Positions 9,922 to 17,770 of a stretch of 64,000 bases of DNA are shown here, piece after piece (position 1 is the stretch's first letter; the number at the start of each line of letters is the position of its first letter). The stretch lies in NCBI GenBank assembly GCA_023251155.1, contig JAHEZH010000009.1, forward strand, positions 1 to 64,000, in the 5' to 3' direction. Origin of the DNA: Flammeovirgaceae bacterium (GTDB lineage: Bacteria > Bacteroidota > Bacteroidia > Cytophagales > Cyclobacteriaceae). The notes beneath the pieces were generated by a model. The model was not told the DNA's origin. It was given only the letters and a program-made list of their open reading frames with translations, and ran no database searches. The translations under genes were made by a program, and so were the position numbers.

Positions 9922-10422
9922 ATGGAGAATATGAATTCACGAGAAGACACGCATGAAAAAATGAATCAGAAAGCTTATTTAAAATTTACGTTAATGCTGG
10001 CAGCATCCTTCATCGCGATGTATATCACCATGTATCTAAATACCTACAGCATAGATCATTTGTATTTCAGTCTCACGAGATTTTACATGAGTTGTTTGGG
10101 CATTTCAGCCATGGCTATTATCATGTTTGTATTCATGCGACATATGTATAAAAATAAAATGAAGAACATTCTGATAATCGCGGGCAGTGTTTTGCTTTTC
10201 GTATGCGCACTCGGTCTTGTGAGAGCACAAAGTCCAATCATTAAAGATGTCCTTTGGATGAAGGCCATGATACCTCACCACTCCATCGCTATCTTGACAA
10301 GCGAACGTGCCGACATTCAAGATCCTGAAGTAAAGAAATTAGCAGAAGGAATTATTGAAGCACAGAAAAGGGAAATTGAAGAAATGAAGGCGATGATTAA
10401 GAGACTCGAAAAATCACATTAA
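9922..10422 (+). CDS. Membrane-anchored DUF305-like protein
   Basis: A 166-residue protein with about three membrane helices in the first 100 residues (LKFTLMLAASFIAMYITMYL, FYMSCLGISAMAIIMFVFM, ILIIAGSVLLFVCALGLV). A short DUF305-like tail follows: DVLWMKAMIPHHSIAILTSE and then a charged helix (IIEAQKREIEEMKAMI). The Met/His motif suggests metal binding on the periplasmic side. It is the last gene of the copper region, 44 bases after the multicopper oxidase and probably in the same transcript. Family confident; function inferred from context. Confidence 0.85.
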   Translation: MENMNSREDTHEKMNQKAYLKFTLMLAASFIAMYITMYLNTYSIDHLYFSLTRFYMSCLGISAMAIIMFVFMRHMYKNKMKNILIIAGSVLLFVCALGLVRAQSPIIKDVLWMKAMIPHHSIAILTSERADIQDPEVKKLAEGIIEAQKREIEEMKAMIKRLEKSH

Positions 10423-10902
10423 TCAAATACGATCAACATAAATTATTCATTGGAAAATTGCGATTGTAAATCCAATAGATAATACAGGAGGGTTCTCGTT
10501 TAATGGTAATGCATTAGACCATTGCACCGGTCAGCCAAAGGTAGGCCTGTTTCAGGTTCGTTGTCAAGGGCATGGCAAGTGACGATGGAGGTTCACTTGA
10601 TATTGGTATCGTCACCCTTGACAACGAACAACGAACCTGAAACAAGCTCAATTGGCGGCTTATCGGTTAAAAATGGTCGGGTGTGATTATTTTGAAAATA
10701 CGTTCTCACTAAGACCCGGTTGTGATCCACTCCAGTCACCTTTGTTTGTCCTCCTTCTGATTTTCTTCATTGCACTTTCCCTGTAGAGATTAATCATGGT
10801 AAAAGTAGCATGGGATGATTCTGCATGCGTCAAAAGACTTCTATATAACCATCGTCAACGGCCTTCAATCCATTAATCTTCGCTCTAAGTATGCAGTTTT
10901 TG
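10423..10902. other. Non-coding stretch holding part of repeat copy A
   Basis: No convincing coding frame. It contains the hairpin of repeat copy A (10533-10680) and a second shared segment at 10775-10815 (core ATTAATCATGGT). The rest, up to the decayed IS110 transposase, shows nothing I recognise. Confidence 0.5.
10533..10680 (+). repeat. Structured repeat element, copy A (hairpin part)
   Basis: Begins AGCCAAAG and contains a nested hairpin. TGTCAAGG (with GTTCG outward) pairs with CCTTGACAACGAAC. Inside, after a 9-base left bulge, GTGACGAT (10579-10586) pairs with ATCGTCAC (10608-10615), enclosing a 21-base loop. The right outer arm carries a 7-base duplication (AACGAAC). It is followed by ATTGGCGGCTTATCGG, shared with copy B. 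Further shared pieces occur at 10775-10815 and 12451-12490, in the same order as in copy B. Confidence 0.75.
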
Positions 10903-12187
10903 CTAGCCTATATTTTGTTGATAACTGCTCAATTCCGGAGGATTAAATTCAATTTGCTTTGACACCATTTTATAATAAGCTGTCGCGAGCTTATTCGCGG
11001 TTGCTATGATCGCCTACATATTCCCAACTTTAGACTTCATTCTTATAAAATAATCTCCAAGCCAGTTTGTCACTTTTCTGCACACCATTTGCTGTATTTC
11101 GAAAAGCTTGACTGGCGATATTCGGCTTCTTCTTCATAACCATACTGCTTACGAGTTTTCCACAAGAGATTTTATTATTGGGACATAAATTTAGCCAGGA
11201 TACGAAGTGTTTTGAAGTTTCCCATTTCTTCATGTCTGTTCCTGTCTCTGTTAATATCTCAAGGGCAGATATGTCACTCAATCCAAAGATCGTTGTAACA
11301 TCCACACCGAGTATGCCTTTGAGGTAACTACAGGTGTTGAATTTCGGAGTGTTTTTGGTGGCTTGTTTTGCTGAATTAGTGGATGTGTCAATAATACTTT
11401 CCGGTAGTACGTCTTTTTGATAGGTATTAAGTTGTTTTTCAATGGCCTGATCACAAGTAGCAATTCGATCGCAATAATATAAGTAACACTTATGACAATC
11501 TTCCAGTAGATATAAAAGTTCGGAGCGCCAGTTTCCCTGCAAGGAGTTCACAATCATTTGATCATTTGCCTTGATATTGTTATTGACAAACTGGAGGAAT
11601 TTATGTGGATCACTTTCGCCTTTAATAATTGCTTCAACGATGGCTAATCCTGTTTTTCCAGTAACGTCATGTATAACAGTGTGAGGTTTGATATTCATTC
11701 ATCTCCATAGCTTTTTGCATACGTAAAATGAAACGATTGCGATCTAATATCAATGTCTTCCTGTGTCGAACTAATGTTGCAATGACGCCTGTTCACTTTC
11801 TGGCAAATAACTATTCTTTAACAGTCCGCAGCTATGTGGGTTTTGAACCCACTGTGCATCGTCTTGTTCATTTTTCCGGCCACTCACGTTCTTCGCTTGC
11901 TTAGAATTGACAAGGTGAACATCAAATCCGTCTTTAACCAACATAGTAAACAAAGGCTTCCAATAAACACCAGTACTTTCCATCGCAACCGTGTCAACAC
12001 CACATTTATGAAGCCACCTTATGATTTAAAACAAATCACAAGTCATTGCTCCAAATGATTTAACAAATTGCTCGTCTCTTCCCTCAGGAACTTCAACAGC
12101 ATGGATCGTATCACCTACATCAATGCCAGCTGCATTAGGATGCACAAGTGGCATCTTAGCAACATTTAGCTTTTTTGACTTTGTCAT
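10903..12187 (-). pseudogene. IS110-family transposase, decayed
   Basis: Pieces in several frames join into one IS110 transposase of normal size. The N-terminus from the ATG at 12187 (MTKSKKLNVAKMPLVHPNAA, then GIDVG) runs to a stop codon at 12026-12028. It resumes through MESTGVYWKPLFTMLVKDGF and NSKQAKNVSGRKNEQDDAQW (DEDD domain). Frames change near 11768 and 11700, followed by the Transposase_20 domain (GILGVDVTTIFGLSDISA, then FVSWLNLCPNN). Another shift near 11066 leads to YFIRMKSKVGN, an internal stop, and AIIATANKLATAYYKMV, ending at 10903. With at least one nonsense codon and three shifts it cannot make active transposase. It sits inside repeat copy A. Confidence 0.9.
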
Positions 12188-12440
12188 AACGATTGATTTT
12201 TGTAAGAAAGCTAATGCCTATTGCCATCAAAGCTTACGCTTCTATACGGGCTCGAACAACCCAATTGGAAAACTAAACAAGCAACAGAACCATACTACGG
12301 CTTGAACTATTTTTCCAATTCTTTTGAAGGTCTCTAACTGCATTAGCCTATAAACAAATTTACCAACGATAAACCACTCTCGCTAGATTTCTATTGACAC
12401 TATGCACTCAGGTTATTTTGAAGGAAGTATTATCTAATAA
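12188..12440 (-). other. Non-coding end of the IS110 element, possible bridge-RNA relic
   Basis: This non-coding stretch of about 250 bases lies just upstream of the transposase start, where IS110 elements carry the structured bridge RNA that selects target and donor. An inverted repeat, GCTAATGC at 12210-12217 and GCATTAGC at 12340-12347, encloses most of it. No fold was computed, and the element's outer end is not defined, so this is a positional inference. Confidence 0.3.
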
Positions 12441-12450
12441 TGTATTTACT

Positions 12451-12490
12451 ACGGCATAAACGGTTTCCCTTCCAGTTCTCGCTTTCAGGC
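12451..12490 (+). repeat. Third shared segment of repeat copy A
   Basis: Contains TACGGCATAAACGGTT followed by a pyrimidine-rich stretch and TCGCTT-CAGG, matching 13922-13962 in copy B. In copy B this lies about 40 bases after the ATTAATCATGGT segment; here about 1.65 kb separates them because of the IS110 remnant. Confidence 0.65.
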
Positions 12491-12518
12491 CGATCCGGTC
12501 AGCGCTGAATGTGCTGGT

Positions 12519-12726
12519 AATTTAAAGAATGCAAAGGTGGTAAGCATGGAAATCATTTGGAATTTCAAAAAAAGAAGGCGACAAATGGGTGGATGGGAAA
12601 ATCCTTAATACTGGAAACGGGAGTGTCTATGCTTCTTCAATCTGGCTCATTGACTCCGATACTCTAAAGGTTCGCGGATACCTGGGGTCATTCTATCGCT
12701 CGCAGGTTTGGAAAAGGACTCAATAA
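12519..12726 (+). pseudogene. DUF2147 protein gene, C-terminal relic
   Basis: About 68 codons resemble the end of a DUF2147 protein. NLKNAKVVSMEIIWNFKK is in one frame. After one surplus A in a run of seven A, EGDKWVDGKILNTGNGSVYA and SDTLKVRGYLGSFYRSQVWK follow in another, to a TAA at 12724-12726. The 5' part of the gene is missing and is replaced by the third segment of repeat copy A, so the gene was cut by that element or by a rearrangement. The next gene, an intact exported protein, begins 35 bases later. Confidence 0.7.
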
Positions 12727-12761
12727 GAAATTGTATCTTCGGGTAGGTAAATTCAAGTCTT

Positions 12762-13295
12762 ATGAAAACGGTTGTTGCCTTACTGATTCTTTCGCCAGTG
12801 TTGGCCTTTGGACAGTTGACCAAACAAGACAGTGTTTGGCTCCCTTTCAAAAACATGATCGGCAAATGGTCAGGAACCTCAGAGGGACAACCAGGAAAAG
12901 GTACCTATGAACGCAGCTATGAAATCGTGCTTAATAAAAAATTCATTGAAGTTAAAAACAAGTCAACCTATCCGCCTTCCACCAATAATCCCAAAGGTGA
13001 AGTACATGAAGACAAAGGCTTTATTAGTTACGATAAAGCACGAAAGACTTTTGTGTTAAGACAGTTTCATATTGAAGGATTTGTGAATCAGTATAAGATA
13101 GAATCCATCTCTCCGGATGGAAAAACTATTGTATTCATTTCCGAAGCAATCGAGAATATTCCAACGGGTTTTCGTGCAAGAGAAACCTATCGGATCATAA
13201 GCAACGATGAATTCACAGAGACTTTCGAATTAGCAGAGCCTGGAAAGGAGTTCGAAGTATATTCGAAGGCTACTTTAAAGCGAACAAAACAATGA
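12762..13295 (+). CDS. Exported lipocalin/FABP-like beta-barrel protein
   Basis: A 177-residue protein with a signal peptide (MKTVVALLILSPVLAFGQ). The remainder reads as an antiparallel barrel with an early MIGKWSGTSEGQPGKG motif, reminiscent of the nitrobindin/THAP4-like and DUF1579 group in which a GxW motif near the N-terminus starts the barrel. Conserved-looking parts include TYERSYEIVLNKKFIEVKN and DKGFISYDKARKTFVLRQFH. Heme or ligand binding cannot be judged from sequence alone. The gene is intact although flanked by the DUF2147 relic and repeat copy B. Fold assignment moderate; function unknown. Confidence 0.7.
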   Translation: MKTVVALLILSPVLAFGQLTKQDSVWLPFKNMIGKWSGTSEGQPGKGTYERSYEIVLNKKFIEVKNKSTYPPSTNNPKGEVHEDKGFISYDKARKTFVLRQFHIEGFVNQYKIESISPDGKTIVFISEAIENIPTGFRARETYRIISNDEFTETFELAEPGKEFEVYSKATLKRTKQ

Positions 13296-13331
13296 GAGAT
13301 TTTTATTAGATACAAAGATCATTCTCCCGCA

Positions 13332-13493
13332 AGCCAAAGTTAATCCCGTTCCGAAATGCCTGTCAAGGGTAATACAGAGTGACAATACTATTTCGTTTAT
13401 TTCTTTGTTGGAATTGTCACCCTTGACAGGCATTTCAGAACGTGCTGATTGGCGGCTTGTCGGAAAGAATGGTGGGGTGGGATTACTTACTTG
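13332..13493 (+). repeat. Structured repeat element, copy B (hairpin part)
   Basis: Begins AGCCAAAG, as in copy A. The outer arms 13345-13370 and 13419-13444 pair over about 25 bases (core ATGCCTGTCAAGGG with CCCTTGACAGGCAT). Inside, after a 10-base left bulge, GTGACAAT (13379-13386) pairs with ATTGTCAC (13413-13420). It is followed by ATTGGCGGCTTGTCGG. Compared with copy A, one inner pair changes from G-C to A-T and the outer stem sequence differs, while pairing is kept. The hairpin begins shortly after the barrel-protein gene. Confidence 0.8.
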
Positions 13494-13593
13494 AGATAGA
13501 CAATTCAAACAAATTCATTTCAGGTCACTCGCATTCGTTTCAATTCATTCATATTCCTATACCCGTATTCGAGGGTTGAACCACATTGCCCTC

Positions 13594-13803
13594 ATGAAAA
13601 TCTATACCAAGAGAAACAGTCAGGGCGATTGGATTGCCTTCCTGTCGGGAGCATTGCTCAACATGATATTTGCTGCTCGTGAAAACGGATGGTCGGATGC
13701 GGAATGGAAGTTATTTATTGCCGGACTAATCGGAGGCATCGTCTGGTTACTGGGAAACTCGTTGTATCAGTGGATCAAAATTCGGTGCCGGGTTCCGTGG
13801 TAA
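13594..13803 (+). CDS. Small hypothetical membrane-associated protein
   Basis: The ATG at 13594 gives 69 residues (MKIYTKRNSQGDWIAFLSGA onward); the upstream TTG at 13576 is less likely. It has two hydrophobic segments (WIAFLSGALLNMIF and FIAGLIGGIVWLLGNSLYQW) and a charged C-terminus. No family recognised. It lies within repeat copy B, between the hairpin and the ATTAATCATGGT segment; the matching interval in copy A is only about 125 bases and lacks it. It may therefore be a cargo gene of the repeat or a chance frame. Confidence 0.4.
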   Translation: MKIYTKRNSQGDWIAFLSGALLNMIFAARENGWSDAEWKLFIAGLIGGIVWLLGNSLYQWIKIRCRVPW

Positions 13804-13857
13804 GTAATTTGATTTCGGCAGTATGAAACTCGCTCTGCCAAGTCCATTTGCTTTCGT

Positions 13858-13962
13858 GCTTTCCATGCAAGTATTAATCATGGTCAAATGTAGCTTGGAG
13901 GTATTCGTTCCTGCAAAAGCTTACGGCATAAACGGTTCCCCCTTACAGCTATCGCTTCCAGG
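13858..13962 (+). repeat. Second and third shared segments of repeat copy B
   Basis: 13858-13900 (CTTTCCATG, ATTAATCATGGT, TGTAGC-TGG) matches 10775-10815 in copy A with few differences. 13922-13962 (TTACGGCATAAACGGTTCCC, then ATCGCTTCCAGG) matches 12451-12490. The same order in both copies shows that they derive from one longer element. Confidence 0.7.
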
Positions 13963-14039: not shown

Positions 14040-14507
14040 ATGGAAAGCACACAGCTAAACAAACAATGGCAGGTAGCAGAGATTCAACTCTCGTACAAAT
14101 CAAATGTAAAGCCTTCACTCAGGCCGAAGATCACCAGCTCACGTGATGCACACGAAGTTTTGAAAAGAGTTTGGAATGATTCAGTAATTGAACTTTGTGA
14201 ACAATTCAAAGTAATCTTCACCAACCGGGCAAACAAAGTACTCGGTGTATTTGAAGTATCAACAGGTGGTATCGCAGGAACAGTAGCTGATCCGAAATTG
14301 ATATTCGTTGCTGCATTAAAAGCTGGCGCGACCGGCCTGATTTTATCGCATAATCACCCCAGTGGAAATCTTACACCAAGCCACGCTGACATTGAACTGA
14401 CAAAGAAAATAAAAGAAGGCGGGCGGCTGCTGGAAATTCAGGTGCTCGACCACATCATTATCACCAGTGAAAGCTATTATTCATTTGCAGATGAGGGGTT
14501 GCTATAA
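14040..14507 (+). CDS. JAB/MPN domain protein, short RadC-like
   Basis: A 155-residue protein consisting essentially of one JAB1/MPN metalloprotease-like domain, as in the C-terminal half of RadC. The zinc motif is complete: HNHPSGNLTPSHAD (His-x-His ... Ser-x-x-Asp), preceded by KAGATGLILS. It lacks the N-terminal helix-hairpin-helix of full RadC. Short stand-alone versions of this type are common on mobile elements in Bacteroidota. It sits about 80 bases after repeat copy B and is followed by a terminator overlapping its stop. Family certain; substrate unknown. Confidence 0.9.
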   Translation: MESTQLNKQWQVAEIQLSYKSNVKPSLRPKITSSRDAHEVLKRVWNDSVIELCEQFKVIFTNRANKVLGVFEVSTGGIAGTVADPKLIFVAALKAGATGLILSHNHPSGNLTPSHADIELTKKIKEGGRLLEIQVLDHIIITSESYYSFADEGLL

Positions 14508-14719: not shown

Positions 14720-14950
14720 ATGAGTAAGAGAACAAAAGATAATGCTGTACTAAGTATTGAATGGCTAAAGCAATACGAAGGGTTTGAGAATTTTTCTGAC
14801 CAACAAGCATTAGAAGCTATTGAATCTATCCGTTCTTTTGCGTATCTTTTTATGAATGTTTACAAGCGAAAAAACAAAAAAGATCATGCAACCCTCCAGC
14901 AAAATGGAACACTTTCAAACCTTCGCAAAAGGAAAACTCAAGGAGAATAG
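14720..14950 (+). CDS. Small hypothetical protein preceding the recombinase
   Basis: A 76-residue protein with an acidic N-terminal half (LSIEWLKQYEGFENFSDQQA, LEAIESIRSFAYLF) and a basic tail. It has no recognised domain. It overlaps the start of the serine recombinase gene by 65 or 95 bases depending on the start chosen, which points to translational coupling. The helical, charged composition and position would suit a small partner or regulator, but this is only inference. Confidence 0.6.
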   Translation: MSKRTKDNAVLSIEWLKQYEGFENFSDQQALEAIESIRSFAYLFMNVYKRKNKKDHATLQQNGTLSNLRKRKTQGE

Positions 14951-16508
14951 AAGTGCCCTTAAAAATGCCATTATTTATACGCGGGTATCCAGTAAGGAGC
15001 AAACAGAAAACATGAGTCTTGATGTTCAACGCAAGGGATGTGAAAATTTTGCCTTGAAGAATAAGCTCATTATTAAAGACACCTTTGGTGGCACATACGA
15101 AAGTGCACAAACAGACGAACGCAATGAGTTCAAGCGGATGGTAACTTTTGCCAAGAACTCAAAAGAAGGAATCTCATATATCATTGTATACAGTCTGGAA
15201 AGATTTAGTCGTACAGGCGAAAATGCAATCTGGTTGTCACGACAACTTAGGGAACTTGGAATAACTATTCTGTCAGTAACACAGCCCATTGATACCAGCA
15301 ACCCTTCAGGTGTACTTCAACAAAACATCCTATTCCTGTTCAGTCAATACGACAACGACCTCAGACGTCAAAAGTGCGTTGACGGAATGCGCGAAAAACT
15401 CCTCAGGGGTGAATGGGTTGGTGTTGCTCCAAAAGGTTATTCTTACGATCATTCCAGCAATTCACGTGAACAAAAAATAGTTATCAATGCTGATGGCAGG
15501 TATGTAAAGAAAATTTTTGAACTCAAAGCATTTGATAAGTTATCCAACACGCAAATATGTGAAGTCATAAACAAAATGGGTTTCAAAATTACTATGCAGC
15601 GTTTATGTGAAATGCTACGCAACCCATTCTACTGCGGATTGATTTCACATAATCTTCTCAACGGTCAGGTGGCTAAGGGAAAACATCCGGCTATTATTTC
15701 AGAAGAGATATTCCTACAGGCTAACGAGCTTATGAAAAAGAATGCAAAGAATTTTCATGGGTATAAACAGAATAAGATTGAAGATAACTTGCCTTTGAAA
15801 CAATTCGTAGTTTGTGCTGAATGTAATACTCCCTTCACAGGGTATATTGTGAAGAAGAAAAACTTATGGTATTACAAGTGTAACAGAATTGGTTGCAAGT
15901 GTAACAAGAGTGCCCGGCACCTACACCAGAAGTTTGAAGAAATCCTGGATCACTATTCTCTAAAAAAGCAGTATGTCAATCCGATCATTGATGCAATTTC
16001 TGAATTGTACTTTAAACGTTCTTCCGAATCCTTTGATGAATCAGCAGGAATCAAAACGAAGATTGCCGAGGTAGAACAGAACCTGGCAACCATTGAAGAA
16101 CGCTACGCATTGGGCAAGATTAATGACGAGATTTTTGAACGCACTTCCTTAAAATTCAAAGCTGAGAAGAAGGCATTAGAGGAATCGTTGGACAACTCGT
16201 TTATAAATTTATCGAACCCATATAAAACCATCGCTGAAGCTGTTGAAAAAGTGGCAAATATTAAAGATTTGTGGGTTTCTCAGGATGCTTTAGAGAAGCA
16301 GAAATTCCAATTTCTGTGCTTTCCGGGAGGGATTCAGTATGATCGTAAAATTGATCATTATCGAACCGTGAATGTAAATCCGGCACTCAAGCTAATTGAT
16401 TCAATATCAGGGAATTTTGATAAAGAAAAAGCGGATAAACCAAAAGCATTTTTTGATTTATCCGCTTCAGTAGTCCCGACAGGAATCGAACCTGTATCAA
16501 AAGTTTAG
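14886..16508 (+). CDS. Large serine recombinase (resolvase/integrase family)
   Basis: About 540 residues. The N-terminal resolvase domain has IIYTRVSSKEQTENMSLDVQ, with the catalytic Ser in the YTRVSS motif, and SLERFSRTGENA. A Recombinase domain follows (GVAPKGYSYDH, then LRNPFYCGLI). Next are a zinc ribbon (CAECNTPF ... CNRIGCKC) and a coiled coil near residues 385-430. Another ATG at 14856 would add ten residues. Such enzymes integrate and excise mobile elements by site-specific recombination. The last codons run antisense through the tRNA-Arg terminator and 38 bases of the tRNA, so the final residues (VVPTGIEPVSKV) are dictated by the tRNA sequence. The element it served is not delimited. 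Confidence 0.92.
   Translation: MQPSSKMEHFQTFAKGKLKENRSALKNAIIYTRVSSKEQTENMSLDVQRKGCENFALKNKLIIKDTFGGTYESAQTDERNEFKRMVTFAKNSKEGISYIIVYSLERFSRTGENAIWLSRQLRELGITILSVTQPIDTSNPSGVLQQNILFLFSQYDNDLRRQKCVDGMREKLLRGEWVGVAPKGYSYDHSSNSREQKIVINADGRYVKKIFELKAFDKLSNTQICEVINKMGFKITMQRLCEMLRNPFYCGLISHNLLNGQVAKGKHPAIISEEIFLQANELMKKNAKNFHGYKQNKIEDNLPLKQFVVCAECNTPFTGYIVKKKNLWYYKCNRIGCKCNKSARHLHQKFEEILDHYSLKKQYVNPIIDAISELYFKRSSESFDESAGIKTKIAEVEQNLATIEERYALGKINDEIFERTSLKFKAEKKALEESLDNSFINLSNPYKTIAEAVEKVANIKDLWVSQDALEKQKFQFLCFPGGIQYDRKIDHYRTVNVNPALKLIDSISGNFDKEKADKPKAFFDLSASVVPTGIEPVSKV
16420..16467 (-). terminator. Terminator of tRNA-Arg on the minus strand
   Basis: An 11-bp perfect stem (AAGCGGATAAA at 16429-16439 with TTTATCCGCTT at 16457-16467) begins three bases after the tRNA 3' end. 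On the minus strand it is followed by TTTCTTTA. It lies inside the 3' coding end of the recombinase on the other strand. Confidence 0.75.
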
Positions 16509-16542
16509 GAAACTTCTATTCTATCCATTGAACTACGGGACC
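16471..16542 (-). tRNA. tRNA-Arg (CCT anticodon)
   Basis: A 72-base cloverleaf on the minus strand: acceptor GGTCCCG/CGGGACT (G-T first pair), D stem GTTC/GAAT, anticodon stem GAAGT/ACTTT with loop TTCCTAA (anticodon CCT), T stem ACAGG/CCTGT with loop TTCGAAT, discriminator A. CCA is not encoded. It lies 43 bases downstream of hflX in the same direction and overlaps the convergent recombinase stop. Confidence 0.93.
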
Positions 16543-16585: not shown

Positions 16586-17770
16586 CTACTGCTCATCCGA
16601 ATAATCCGTATAGCTATTGTTCACCACAAAATTGGGATAAATAGCCAGGTGGAATTTCTTTATCTGATCGAAAAGCAATTTCTTCAGCTCAGCAATATTC
16701 AGCTTGGAGGTAGCCGAAACAAAAATAACATGGTCATATCCATGTTGCCGGTAATAGCCCTTCTTCTCTTCCAGATCAATAGCTTCTTCCTGCTCTTGCA
16801 GCAAATCGATTTTATTCAATACCAGAATAGTAGGAATGTTGCCCGCTCCTATCTCGGCCAGCGTCTTCGTGACCACCTCGATATGATTGTTGTGAAACGG
16901 ATGTGATACATCAGCCACATGAATCAACAGATCGGCTTCGCGCACTTCGTCCAGCGTGGATTTGAATGACTCAATCAGATGATGAGGCAGCTTGCGAATA
17001 AATCCGACAGTATCCGAAAGCAGGAAGGGAATCCCCTCCAATACTACCTTACGCACGGTTGAATCAACGGTAGCGAAAAGTTTATTCTCTGCTTTTACCT
17101 CCGCCTTCGAGAGCAGATTCATCAAGGTCGATTTACCTACGTTGGTGTATCCCACCAACGCCACACGCACTACGCCACTTCTGGATTTCCGCTGCGTCTG
17201 GCGTTGCTTATCAATCTTCTTTAATTCTTCTTTAAGCAACGCGATCTCATTACGGATCATCCGCCTGTCGGTCTCTATTTCCCTTTCGCCCGATCCTCCA
17301 CGTGTACCGGTACCTCCACGCTGCCGCTCAAGGTGAGTCCACATGCGGGTAAGGCGGGGGAGCAAATACTGATTCATGGCCAGATCTACCTGCGTGCGTG
17401 CCTGGGCAGTTTGCGCCCTCATTACAAAAATGTCGAGGATCAGTAAACTGCGGTCGTAAATCCTCACTTTGCGGTCTTCCCGGTCAGCTGGATTGAACTC
17501 TTTCTCCAGGTTTCGCAGCTGCGAAGGGCTCAGGTCATCATCAAAAATCAGGTTGTTCACCTCTTTTGCGAAGGCAAACTGCTTGATTTCCTCCAGCTTA
17601 CCTTTACCAACAAACGTGCGCACATCAGGGTGCGGAAGGCGCTGTACGTAACGGTTCAGGGTCTTTATACCTGCTGTTTCAGCCAGAAAGGCAAGCTCAT
17701 CCAGGTGTTCATCAATCTCTTCAGGCTTGGATTTGCCCGTATTCAGGGAGACCAGTAAGGCAGTATTCAA
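16586..17770 (-). CDS. hflX: GTPase HflX
   Basis: A 394-residue ribosome-associated GTPase that splits or rescues stalled 70S ribosomes. It has the HflX N-terminal domain (HPDVRTFVGKGKLEEI, then LIFDDDLSPSQLRNLEKEF) and a basic coiled linker containing the GGTGTRGGSGE loop. The G domain has G1 GYTNVGKST (about 207), DTVGFIRKLP (G3) and NKID (G4). Length is typical, and the ATG at 17770 is preceded by a good promoter. It is followed by tRNA-Arg on the same strand. Confidence 0.97.
   Translation of the reverse strand: MNTALLVSLNTGKSKPEEIDEHLDELAFLAETAGIKTLNRYVQRLPHPDVRTFVGKGKLEEIKQFAFAKEVNNLIFDDDLSPSQLRNLEKEFNPADREDRKVRIYDRSLLILDIFVMRAQTAQARTQVDLAMNQYLLPRLTRMWTHLERQRGGTGTRGGSGEREIETDRRMIRNEIALLKEELKKIDKQRQTQRKSRSGVVRVALVGYTNVGKSTLMNLLSKAEVKAENKLFATVDSTVRKVVLEGIPFLLSDTVGFIRKLPHHLIESFKSTLDEVREADLLIHVADVSHPFHNNHIEVVTKTLAEIGAGNIPTILVLNKIDLLQEQEEAIDLEEKKGYYRQHGYDHVIFVSATSKLNIAELKKLLFDQIKKFHLAIYPNFVVNNSYTDYSDEQ

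What the first reader, a model, noticed from the sequence alone, without database searches (positions are those of the whole stretch)
10533..13493. Two diverged copies of a nested, covarying hairpin repeat
10533-10680 and 13332-13493 share AGCCAAAG at the left and ATTGGCGGCTT-TCGG at the right, and the same nested fold: outer stem TGTCAAGG/CCTTGACA, a 9-10 base left bulge, inner stem GTGACRAT/ATYGTCAC, and a loop of 21-26 bases. The copies differ by a compensatory change in the inner stem (G-C to A-T) and by wholly different outer-stem sequence that still pairs, so pairing and not sequence has been kept. This points to selection on a structure, as a folded RNA or a cruciform read by a protein. 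I do not recognise it as a named family.
Basis: partly seen in the sequence, partly recalled or inferred. Interest (0 to 1): 0.75.

Follow-up and report, generated by a model that had tools for sequence, protein, structure and literature searches.

The report
Promoter-bearing hairpin shared by mobile elements
A long DNA hairpin seen twice here belongs to a family scattered through the mobile elements of one bacterial group; it hides a promoter whose melting site usually lies in an open bubble, so it may call RNA polymerase to single-stranded DNA, though this is untested.

Summary
The two hairpins are real and form a family. A covariance model (E <= 0.001) found it in 26 of 62 genomes of the genus and 44 of 390 of the family, in conjugative elements and in IS481 and IS3 insertion sequences; a DNA pattern found 9 viral contigs. 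Covariation is strong: 171 cells changed on both sides of a pair against 50.9 in shuffles. No Rfam family passes its threshold. New: the reverse strand carries a Bacteroidota promoter (TTG, spacer, TAnnTTTG; 38 of 41 spacers 19-21) in 41 of 75 distinct hairpins, the forward strand in 1 of 75, shuffles 0.45. Folded as single-stranded DNA, -33 and spacer pair (0.92, 0.81) and -7 is mostly open (0.43; mostly paired in 6 of 51). radC follows on the same strand at 32 of 82 hairpins, on the opposite strand at 0. Best reading: an RNA-polymerase-recruiting single-strand hairpin, Frpo/ssi-like, 0.38. Against it: not in a classical leading region, F gave no yardstick, insertion-sequence and phage copies unexplained. 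Rivals: 3'-end insulator, 6S-like RNA, cassette site, passenger.

The parts
10517..10684 (+). hairpin copy 1 (168 nt), with a 7-base tandem duplication in the right arm
   Evidence: covariance model R1, 146.9 bits, though the sequence is part of the model; DNA fold z -6.05
13317..13480 (+). hairpin copy 2 (164 nt)
   Evidence: R1, 151.2 bits, also part of the model; DNA fold z -7.02
10536..10543 (-). -7 box TACCTTTG of the reverse-strand promoter, copy 1; pairing probability 0.35
10565..10567 (-). -33 TTG, copy 1 (spacer 21), in a paired stem
13335..13342 (-). -7 box TAACTTTG of the reverse-strand promoter, copy 2; pairing probability 0.27
13364..13366 (-). -33 TTG, copy 2 (spacer 21), in a paired stem
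14040..14507 (+). short RadC (JAB domain, 155 aa), 560 bp 3' of copy 2 on the same strand
   Evidence: PF04002 E 1.6e-38; recurrent neighbour
12762..13295 (+). gene (PF08768) whose stop is 22 bp before copy 2; a similar gene ends beside a hairpin in another genome (L048/L209) and the left flanks match
13846..13962 (+). pre-radC segment; two pieces of it recur 3' of copy 1
10760..10813 (+). degenerate pre-radC piece 3' of copy 1 (second piece 12450-12489), with an IS110-type element between the two pieces

Best explanation
The hairpin is a transferable module of mobile elements that presents a Bacteroidota promoter to RNA polymerase in folded single-stranded DNA. Shown: a covarying stem; a reverse-strand promoter with paired -33 and spacer; a -7 box that is mostly unpaired; one orientation within each non-IS cluster; presence in conjugative elements, IS481/IS3 and viral contigs. 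Inferred: when the strand that carries the promoter (minus in the window) is single-stranded, it folds and its 3' arm acts as non-template strand with the -7 already melted; RNA polymerase starts there and reads outward, toward radC in the conjugative elements, making an early transcript and/or a primer for the second strand. In double-stranded DNA the arm facing radC has no -7 box, so that direction should be silent. It would be an Frpo/ssi-like element with Bacteroidota promoter boxes. In the insertion sequences it might prime second-strand synthesis on single-stranded copy-out intermediates; that step is speculation.
For: Promoter on the reverse strand in 41 of 75 distinct hairpins, forward 1 of 75, shuffle expectation 0.45; 38 of the 41 spacers are 19-21. 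Pairing probability on the minus strand, over the 51 of 71 sequences with a relaxed match: -33 0.92, spacer 0.81, -7 0.43. In the consensus structure the -7 columns are an internal loop between covarying helices. radC on the same strand and 3' at 32 of 82 hairpin rows (28 distinct radC genes), 5' at 2, opposite strand at 0, none in the fetched piece at 48. Hairpins of one contig within 90 kb share an orientation in 7 of 7 non-IS clusters, 16 hairpins. TAnnTTTG with TTTG at -33 is the published Bacteroidota sigma consensus (PMC7366714 and PMC9723704, passages); PMC7366714 adds that the -33 motif was not found in Flavobacterium johnsoniae. F has two Frpo copies that fold and rebuild promoter boxes, and its early genes use the transferred strand as template (PMC9849209, passages). 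The module is gained or lost: of the IS481 loci whose match reaches the C-terminus, the five distinct places at 84% or more of transposase identity and one decayed copy at 72% carry it, five other elements at 66-70% lack it, four of these with the same TGTAATAG end.
Against: Not in a classical leading region: in the cargo-free elements it lies about 1 kb from the end that faces radC and 27-33 kb 3' of the nearest relaxase in five genomes (G096, G045, G038, G009, G023), with tra genes between in those I read; G048 has no PF03432 relaxase inside its element; no oriT or transfer polarity was found. The nearest ORF between hairpin and radC runs against radC in 21 of 26 rows, so it would be read antisense. 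IS481/IS3 copies and tailed phages are not known to need a single-strand promoter, and IS-borne hairpins in G660 and G323 lie in mixed orientation. In F, no strong -35/-10 pair turned up in regions chosen by position. 34 of 75 hairpins lack the strict promoter, and -7 is mostly paired (0.6 or more) in 6 of the 51. Bias: the founder set was picked with GCCAAAG, and the model rewards the boxes; the phage pattern required the -7 motif. Some weak members (L214, L250) have no box and chromosomal-looking neighbours. 14 further radC loci gave one full hairpin (L338) and one without a box (L334).
Confidence: 0.38

Rival explanations
1. A 3'-end insulator working in double-stranded DNA and RNA: a long hairpin between converging genes blocks read-through from both sides, and the outward promoter fires against incoming transcription. 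In insertion sequences the same promoter would also read across the junction of a circular intermediate into the transposase gene.
For: Nearest mechanical ORFs of 90 aa or more within 700 bp, 81 distinct hairpins: left ORF runs toward the hairpin 55, away 18; right ORF toward 43, away 29; converging is the commonest case, 31 of 81; median gap 113 bp on the left and 44 bp on the right when running toward it. In IS481 the hairpin starts 33 bp from the element end and the transposase stop follows its right end.
Against: No T-run seen at the hairpin ends (sequences; in the window 2 terminator-like matches against 2.0 in shuffles, one of them inside copy 1). It does not explain why the -7 box tends to stay unpaired or why hairpins of one non-IS cluster keep one orientation.
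Confidence: 0.22
2. A 6S-like RNA: the transcribed hairpin mimics an open promoter and ties up host RNA polymerase for the benefit of the mobile element.
For: Same geometry as the DNA reading: paired -33 and spacer, bubble at -7; RNA folds are very stable; carried by several element types.
Against: No Rfam model passes its threshold at the hairpins; no dedicated promoter for such an RNA was looked for beyond the embedded boxes; no expression data.
Confidence: 0.13
3. A recombination site read as folded single-stranded DNA, like integron attC: modules of cargo are joined at hairpins.
For: Cargo blocks lie between hairpins in direct order. Pairs with the same left flank and hairpin but different right flank: L102/L104/L199 against L106 and L233, and L105/L117/L200 against L118; L104 and L106 diverge just past the right end (L035 and L038).
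Against: 0 of 58 genomes have an integron integrase over the cut-off; attC boxes (recalled consensus) not seen; insertion sequences with hairpins move by their own ends; in L228/L230 the hairpin goes with the right flank instead; ordinary homologous recombination would give the same mosaics.
Confidence: 0.08
4. A non-autonomous palindromic (MITE-like) passenger that spread by its own hop and now has no function.
For: Scattered among unrelated elements; one IS481 subfamily has it and its relatives do not.
Against: Strong compensatory evolution over deep divergence argues for function. The identical multi-copy set seen (5 in one genome) lies inside a full IS. Target duplications of the hairpin alone were not tested.
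Confidence: 0.1

Closest known systems
Frpo / ssi single-stranded DNA promoters of conjugative plasmids (F, ColIb-P9)
   Same: Long hairpin, promoter boxes rebuilt in the folded strand, more than one copy per element, hosted by conjugative DNA (passages of PMC9849209 and PMC11541004).
   Different: Bacteroidota boxes (TTG / TAnnTTTG), about 160 nt, beside radC at the element end rather than in a shown leading region, and also inside IS481/IS3 and viral contigs. No sequence relation was established.
Complementary-strand origins read by RNA polymerase on single strands (M13 origin, sso of rolling-circle plasmids; recalled, no call)
   Same: A folded single strand recruits RNA polymerase to start the second strand.
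   Different: Other hosts and boxes; no comparison was made here.
6S RNA / 6S-Flavo
   Same: Open-promoter-like geometry of paired arms and a central bubble (6S geometry recalled).
   Different: No Rfam match over threshold; mobile and scattered; promoter boxes of the DNA kind conserved.
Integron attC sites
   Same: Imperfect palindromes that join modules in one orientation.
   Different: No integron integrase over the cut-off; boxes differ.
HMP_4078, palindromic candidate from Bacteroidetes near phage domains (PMC8040213, section 8 read)
   Same: Palindromic, 109 bp, not predicted as an intrinsic terminator, mostly Bacteroidetes, near phage genes.

Membership tests
Frpo / ssi ssDNA promoter | stable stem-loop of one strand | tested here: met
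Frpo / ssi ssDNA promoter | host promoter boxes rebuilt in the folded strand | tested here: met
   Bacteroidota boxes in 41 of 75; -33 and spacer paired, -7 mostly open in the mean of 51 of 71, -7 mostly paired in 6 of the 51
Frpo / ssi ssDNA promoter | lies in the leading region, upstream of early genes that use the transferred strand as template | tested here: inconclusive
   radC is oriented as required, but the nearest ORF mostly is not (21 of 26 rows), the hairpin is 27-33 kb 3' of the relaxase and no oriT is known
Frpo / ssi ssDNA promoter | resemblance to F Frpo measured by the same method | tested here: inconclusive
   no strong -35/-10 pair found in the chosen F regions by a simple search
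Frpo / ssi ssDNA promoter | transcription from single-stranded DNA | not testable with these tools
   needs in vitro transcription
Integron attC | integron integrase in the genome | tested here: not met
   0 of 58 genomes over the TIGR02249 cut-off
Integron attC | RYYYAAC / GTTRRRY boxes (recalled) | tested here: not met
   by eye on the arms
Intrinsic terminator | T-run directly after the stem | tested here: not met
   by eye on the sequences; scan of 10400-13600 only
Known RNA families (Rfam 15, including 6S) | score over the family threshold | tested here: not met
   gathering, whole window; E-value mode on part of the window and 11 loci: no hit over a gathering score

The most novel reading that the evidence does not exclude
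Unrelated mobile elements of Bacteroidota (conjugative elements, IS481 and IS3 insertion sequences, tailed phages) share one transferable DNA hairpin that works only when single-stranded: it docks the housekeeping RNA polymerase on a pre-melted promoter with Bacteroidota boxes, to start second-strand synthesis or early transcription. In what I saw (listings; passages of two Frpo papers, the one word-checked naming no Bacteroidota) no such element is described for this phylum or for insertion sequences.
Probability: 0.3. Interest if true: 0.78.

Novelty: new variant of a known kind. Interest (0 to 1): 0.57.

Why it matters
If right, it gives Bacteroidota mobile elements a single-strand start signal of their own, explains how incoming single strands are expressed or copied in a phylum with unusual promoters, and supplies a marker of mobile DNA in metagenomes. 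Even if the mechanism is different, a covarying hairpin with embedded promoter boxes carried by at least four kinds of mobile element is a testable new family.

Tried and rejected
Integron/attC: considered from the gene-hairpin-gene layout; rejected as membership because no integrase passes the cut-off (0 of 58 genomes) and the boxes do not fit, though module joining at hairpins remains visible.

radC as obligate partner: the chromosomal-type radC loci L299-L328 have no good hairpin within about 1.5 kb (2 of 30 have a weak descriptor hit). Of 14 further radC loci, three cut short by a contig start, L338 has a full hairpin 2.45 kb upstream and L334 a hairpin without the box. So the radC link is mostly a property of this conjugative-element family, plus 3 of 9 viral contigs.

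Wider spread: a strict pattern in 395 genomes of the class gave 1 match, in another genome of the same family; it also misses the known copies of the window's own genome, so it says little. Copy 1 against plasmids: no match. The 60 genome contigs stretches were rescored with the model: 17 matches above 140 bits on 16 stretches, titled Cyclobacteriaceae, Cytophagales, Flammeovirgaceae or Bacteroidetes; the other 44 gave none at E <= 1 and are taken as chance.

Intrinsic terminator: no T-run. Rfam: nothing over a gathering score at the hairpins. F plasmid control: uninformative.
Full report
WHAT IS THERE. An exact pattern in 96 relatives gave homologues in the same genus along with chance hits. 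I aligned 13 copies and built a covariance model. At E <= 0.001 it finds the hairpin in 26 of 62 genomes of the genus, 44 of 390 of the family and 8 of 390 of the order, two of these outside the family and weak. High-scoring matches among 60 pattern stretches of genome contigs (16 of 60) carry the titles Cyclobacteriaceae, Cytophagales, Flammeovirgaceae or Bacteroidetes.

STRUCTURE IS SELECTED. On 40 sequences and 50 pairs, 83.6% of cells pair (73.6% shuffled), 29 pairs have changes on both sides (18.6), 171 cells have double changes (50.9) and the covariation score is 0.223 (0.080, 0 of 500); sliding the partners gives at most 0.101; the number of further pair types is less clear (67 against 61.5, 33 of 500). 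The structure was taken from one member, which favours it on cells paired, and shuffles do not keep relatedness.

BUT SEQUENCE IS KEPT TOO. In most of 71 distinct members three stretches stay while the other stem sequence changes: GCAAAGnTA in the left arm, GTCAAGGG with its partner CCCTTGAC, and the GC(A/G)AGTG edge of the left bulge. Read on the other strand, the first two are TAnCTTTGC and CCCTTGAC: the -7 (TAnnTTTG) and -33 (TTG/TTTG) boxes of the Bacteroidota housekeeping sigma (PMC7366714 and PMC9723704, passages). The strict promoter is on the reverse strand in 41 of 75 distinct hairpins and on the forward strand in 1; shuffles give 0.45 per strand. Spacers are 19-21 in 38 of the 41: mostly 21 in the conjugative family, 19 in IS481, 20 in one IS3 group. 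Caution: the founder set was picked with GCCAAAG and the model rewards these boxes. In the window the motif with spacer 19-21 occurs five times, all on the minus strand, against 2.1 on both strands in shuffles: two in the hairpins, one 54 bp before the start of the gene at 16586-17770, two others.

THE BUBBLE. Folding the minus strand with DNA parameters for the 51 of 71 sequences with a relaxed promoter match gives mean pairing 0.92 at -33, 0.81 in the spacer and 0.43 at -7; in 6 of the 51 the -7 is mostly paired (0.6 or more). In the consensus structure the -7 box is an internal loop between covarying helices. PMC9849209 (passages) reports that single-stranded Frpo folds and reconstitutes -10 and -35 boxes; that its -10 is open is my recollection and not read.

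WHERE IT SITS. In conjugative elements it lies between the end of a tra operon (TraJ, K, M, N confirmed in L203; one more gene without a family match) and a short RadC/JAB gene (PF04002). The cargo-free elements end about 200 bp after radC at a repeat of a tRNA 3' end. Direct repeats of it mark elements of 114-161 kb in four genomes, and in each of the four the far copy is the end of a whole tRNA-Lys gene while the copy beside the hairpin is not. radC is on the same strand 3' of the hairpin in 32 of 82 hairpin rows (28 distinct radC genes, one a fragment), 5' in 2, on the opposite strand in 0, and absent from the fetched piece in 48, some of them cut short by a contig end. In cargo-free elements the distance is 313-339 bp (L203, L205, L206, L212, L213); elsewhere cargo fills the gap, and the nearest ORF there runs against radC in 21 of 26 rows. 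Larger elements have two or three hairpins in one orientation (7 of 7 non-IS clusters within 90 kb, 16 hairpins); IS-borne copies in G660 and G323 are in mixed orientation, and two hairpins 286 kb apart in G097 differ. The window shows two units: copy 1 is followed by fragments of the same pre-radC segment that follows copy 2, with an IS110-type element between the fragments.

OTHER HOSTS. In G660 five identical copies of a 1324 bp IS481 element (NF033577) carry a diverged hairpin that starts 33 bp from the IS end, with the transposase stop just after its right end; each of the five is flanked by a 7 bp repeat. Of the IS481 loci whose match reaches the C-terminus, five distinct places at 84% or more of transposase identity and one decayed copy at 72% (L236, the same place as L350) carry it; five other elements at 66-70% lack it, four of them with the same TGTAATAG end. 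So it is a module that is gained or lost. IS3-type elements (NF033516 for L253 and L256) carry other versions, some with the transposase frame running through the hairpin. A pattern search found nine viral contigs with about six distinct hairpins, several with terminase or portal genes by inspection; in three (L292, L293, L297) a radC follows on the same strand at 633, 200 and 178 bp. This pattern required the -7 motif, so it is no independent support for that box, and the model R1 barely scores these contigs (best E 0.21), so they are relatives by motif only.

MECHANISM. The reading that uses structure, promoter, bubble, orientation and transferability together is an RNA-polymerase-recruiting hairpin on single-stranded DNA. 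If the minus strand is single, its 3' arm carries intact -33 and -7 boxes as non-template strand and transcription leaves toward radC. In duplex DNA the arm facing radC lacks a -7 box and only the outward promoter remains. Steps shown: structure, boxes, bubble, neighbours. Steps inferred: single-strand activity, strand polarity, benefit. Against it: the hairpin is 27-33 kb 3' of the nearest relaxase in five genomes; most cargo next to the hairpin faces the other way; F gave no yardstick; insertion sequences and phages need another rationale. The insulator reading fits the 3'-end position (31 of 81 between converging ORFs) and must stay close behind.

NOVELTY. No Rfam 15 family passes its threshold at the hairpins. 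Paper searches for single-stranded promoters in Bacteroidota elements gave nothing relevant in the listings. One published palindromic candidate, HMP_4078, found near phage genes in Bacteroidetes, may be a relative (section 8 of PMC8040213 read); I could not compare sequences. I file it as a new variant of a known kind, conditional on the Frpo-like reading.

Noticed in passing
window 11030-12190: IS110-family transposase (Transposase_20), apparently frameshifted, between two fragments of the pre-radC segment that follows hairpin copy 1.
   Followed up: partly
window 14856-16542: Large serine recombinase (Resolvase + Recombinase domains) whose 3' end overlaps by 38 bp a tRNA gene on the other strand (16471-16542); possibly an integration into the tRNA gene.
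   Followed up: no
L243, L244, L248, L251, L253: IS3 transposase frames stay open through the whole hairpin (stop 57 bp beyond it) in related copies; in L253 the IS3 profile ends at residue 278 of 354, so the hairpin may encode a C-terminal tail.
   Followed up: partly
G005:C1, G008:C10, G011:C134, G013:C108, G026:C131, G029:C59, G033:C26, G034:C35: Tyrosine recombinases that match the integron integrase profile in separate pieces below the cut-off and lie within about 1 kb of a contig start, as multi-copy elements would.
   Followed up: no
L111, L112, L113: Small integrative units: hairpin, cargo, then radC and/or a small DNA-binding-like protein, then a tyrosine integrase (the integrase in L112 has PF00589, that in L111 only PF13102; L113 by inspection).
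   Followed up: partly
window 13916 (-): A further TTG-N21-TAnnTTTG match in the pre-radC segment, pointing away from radC.
   Followed up: no
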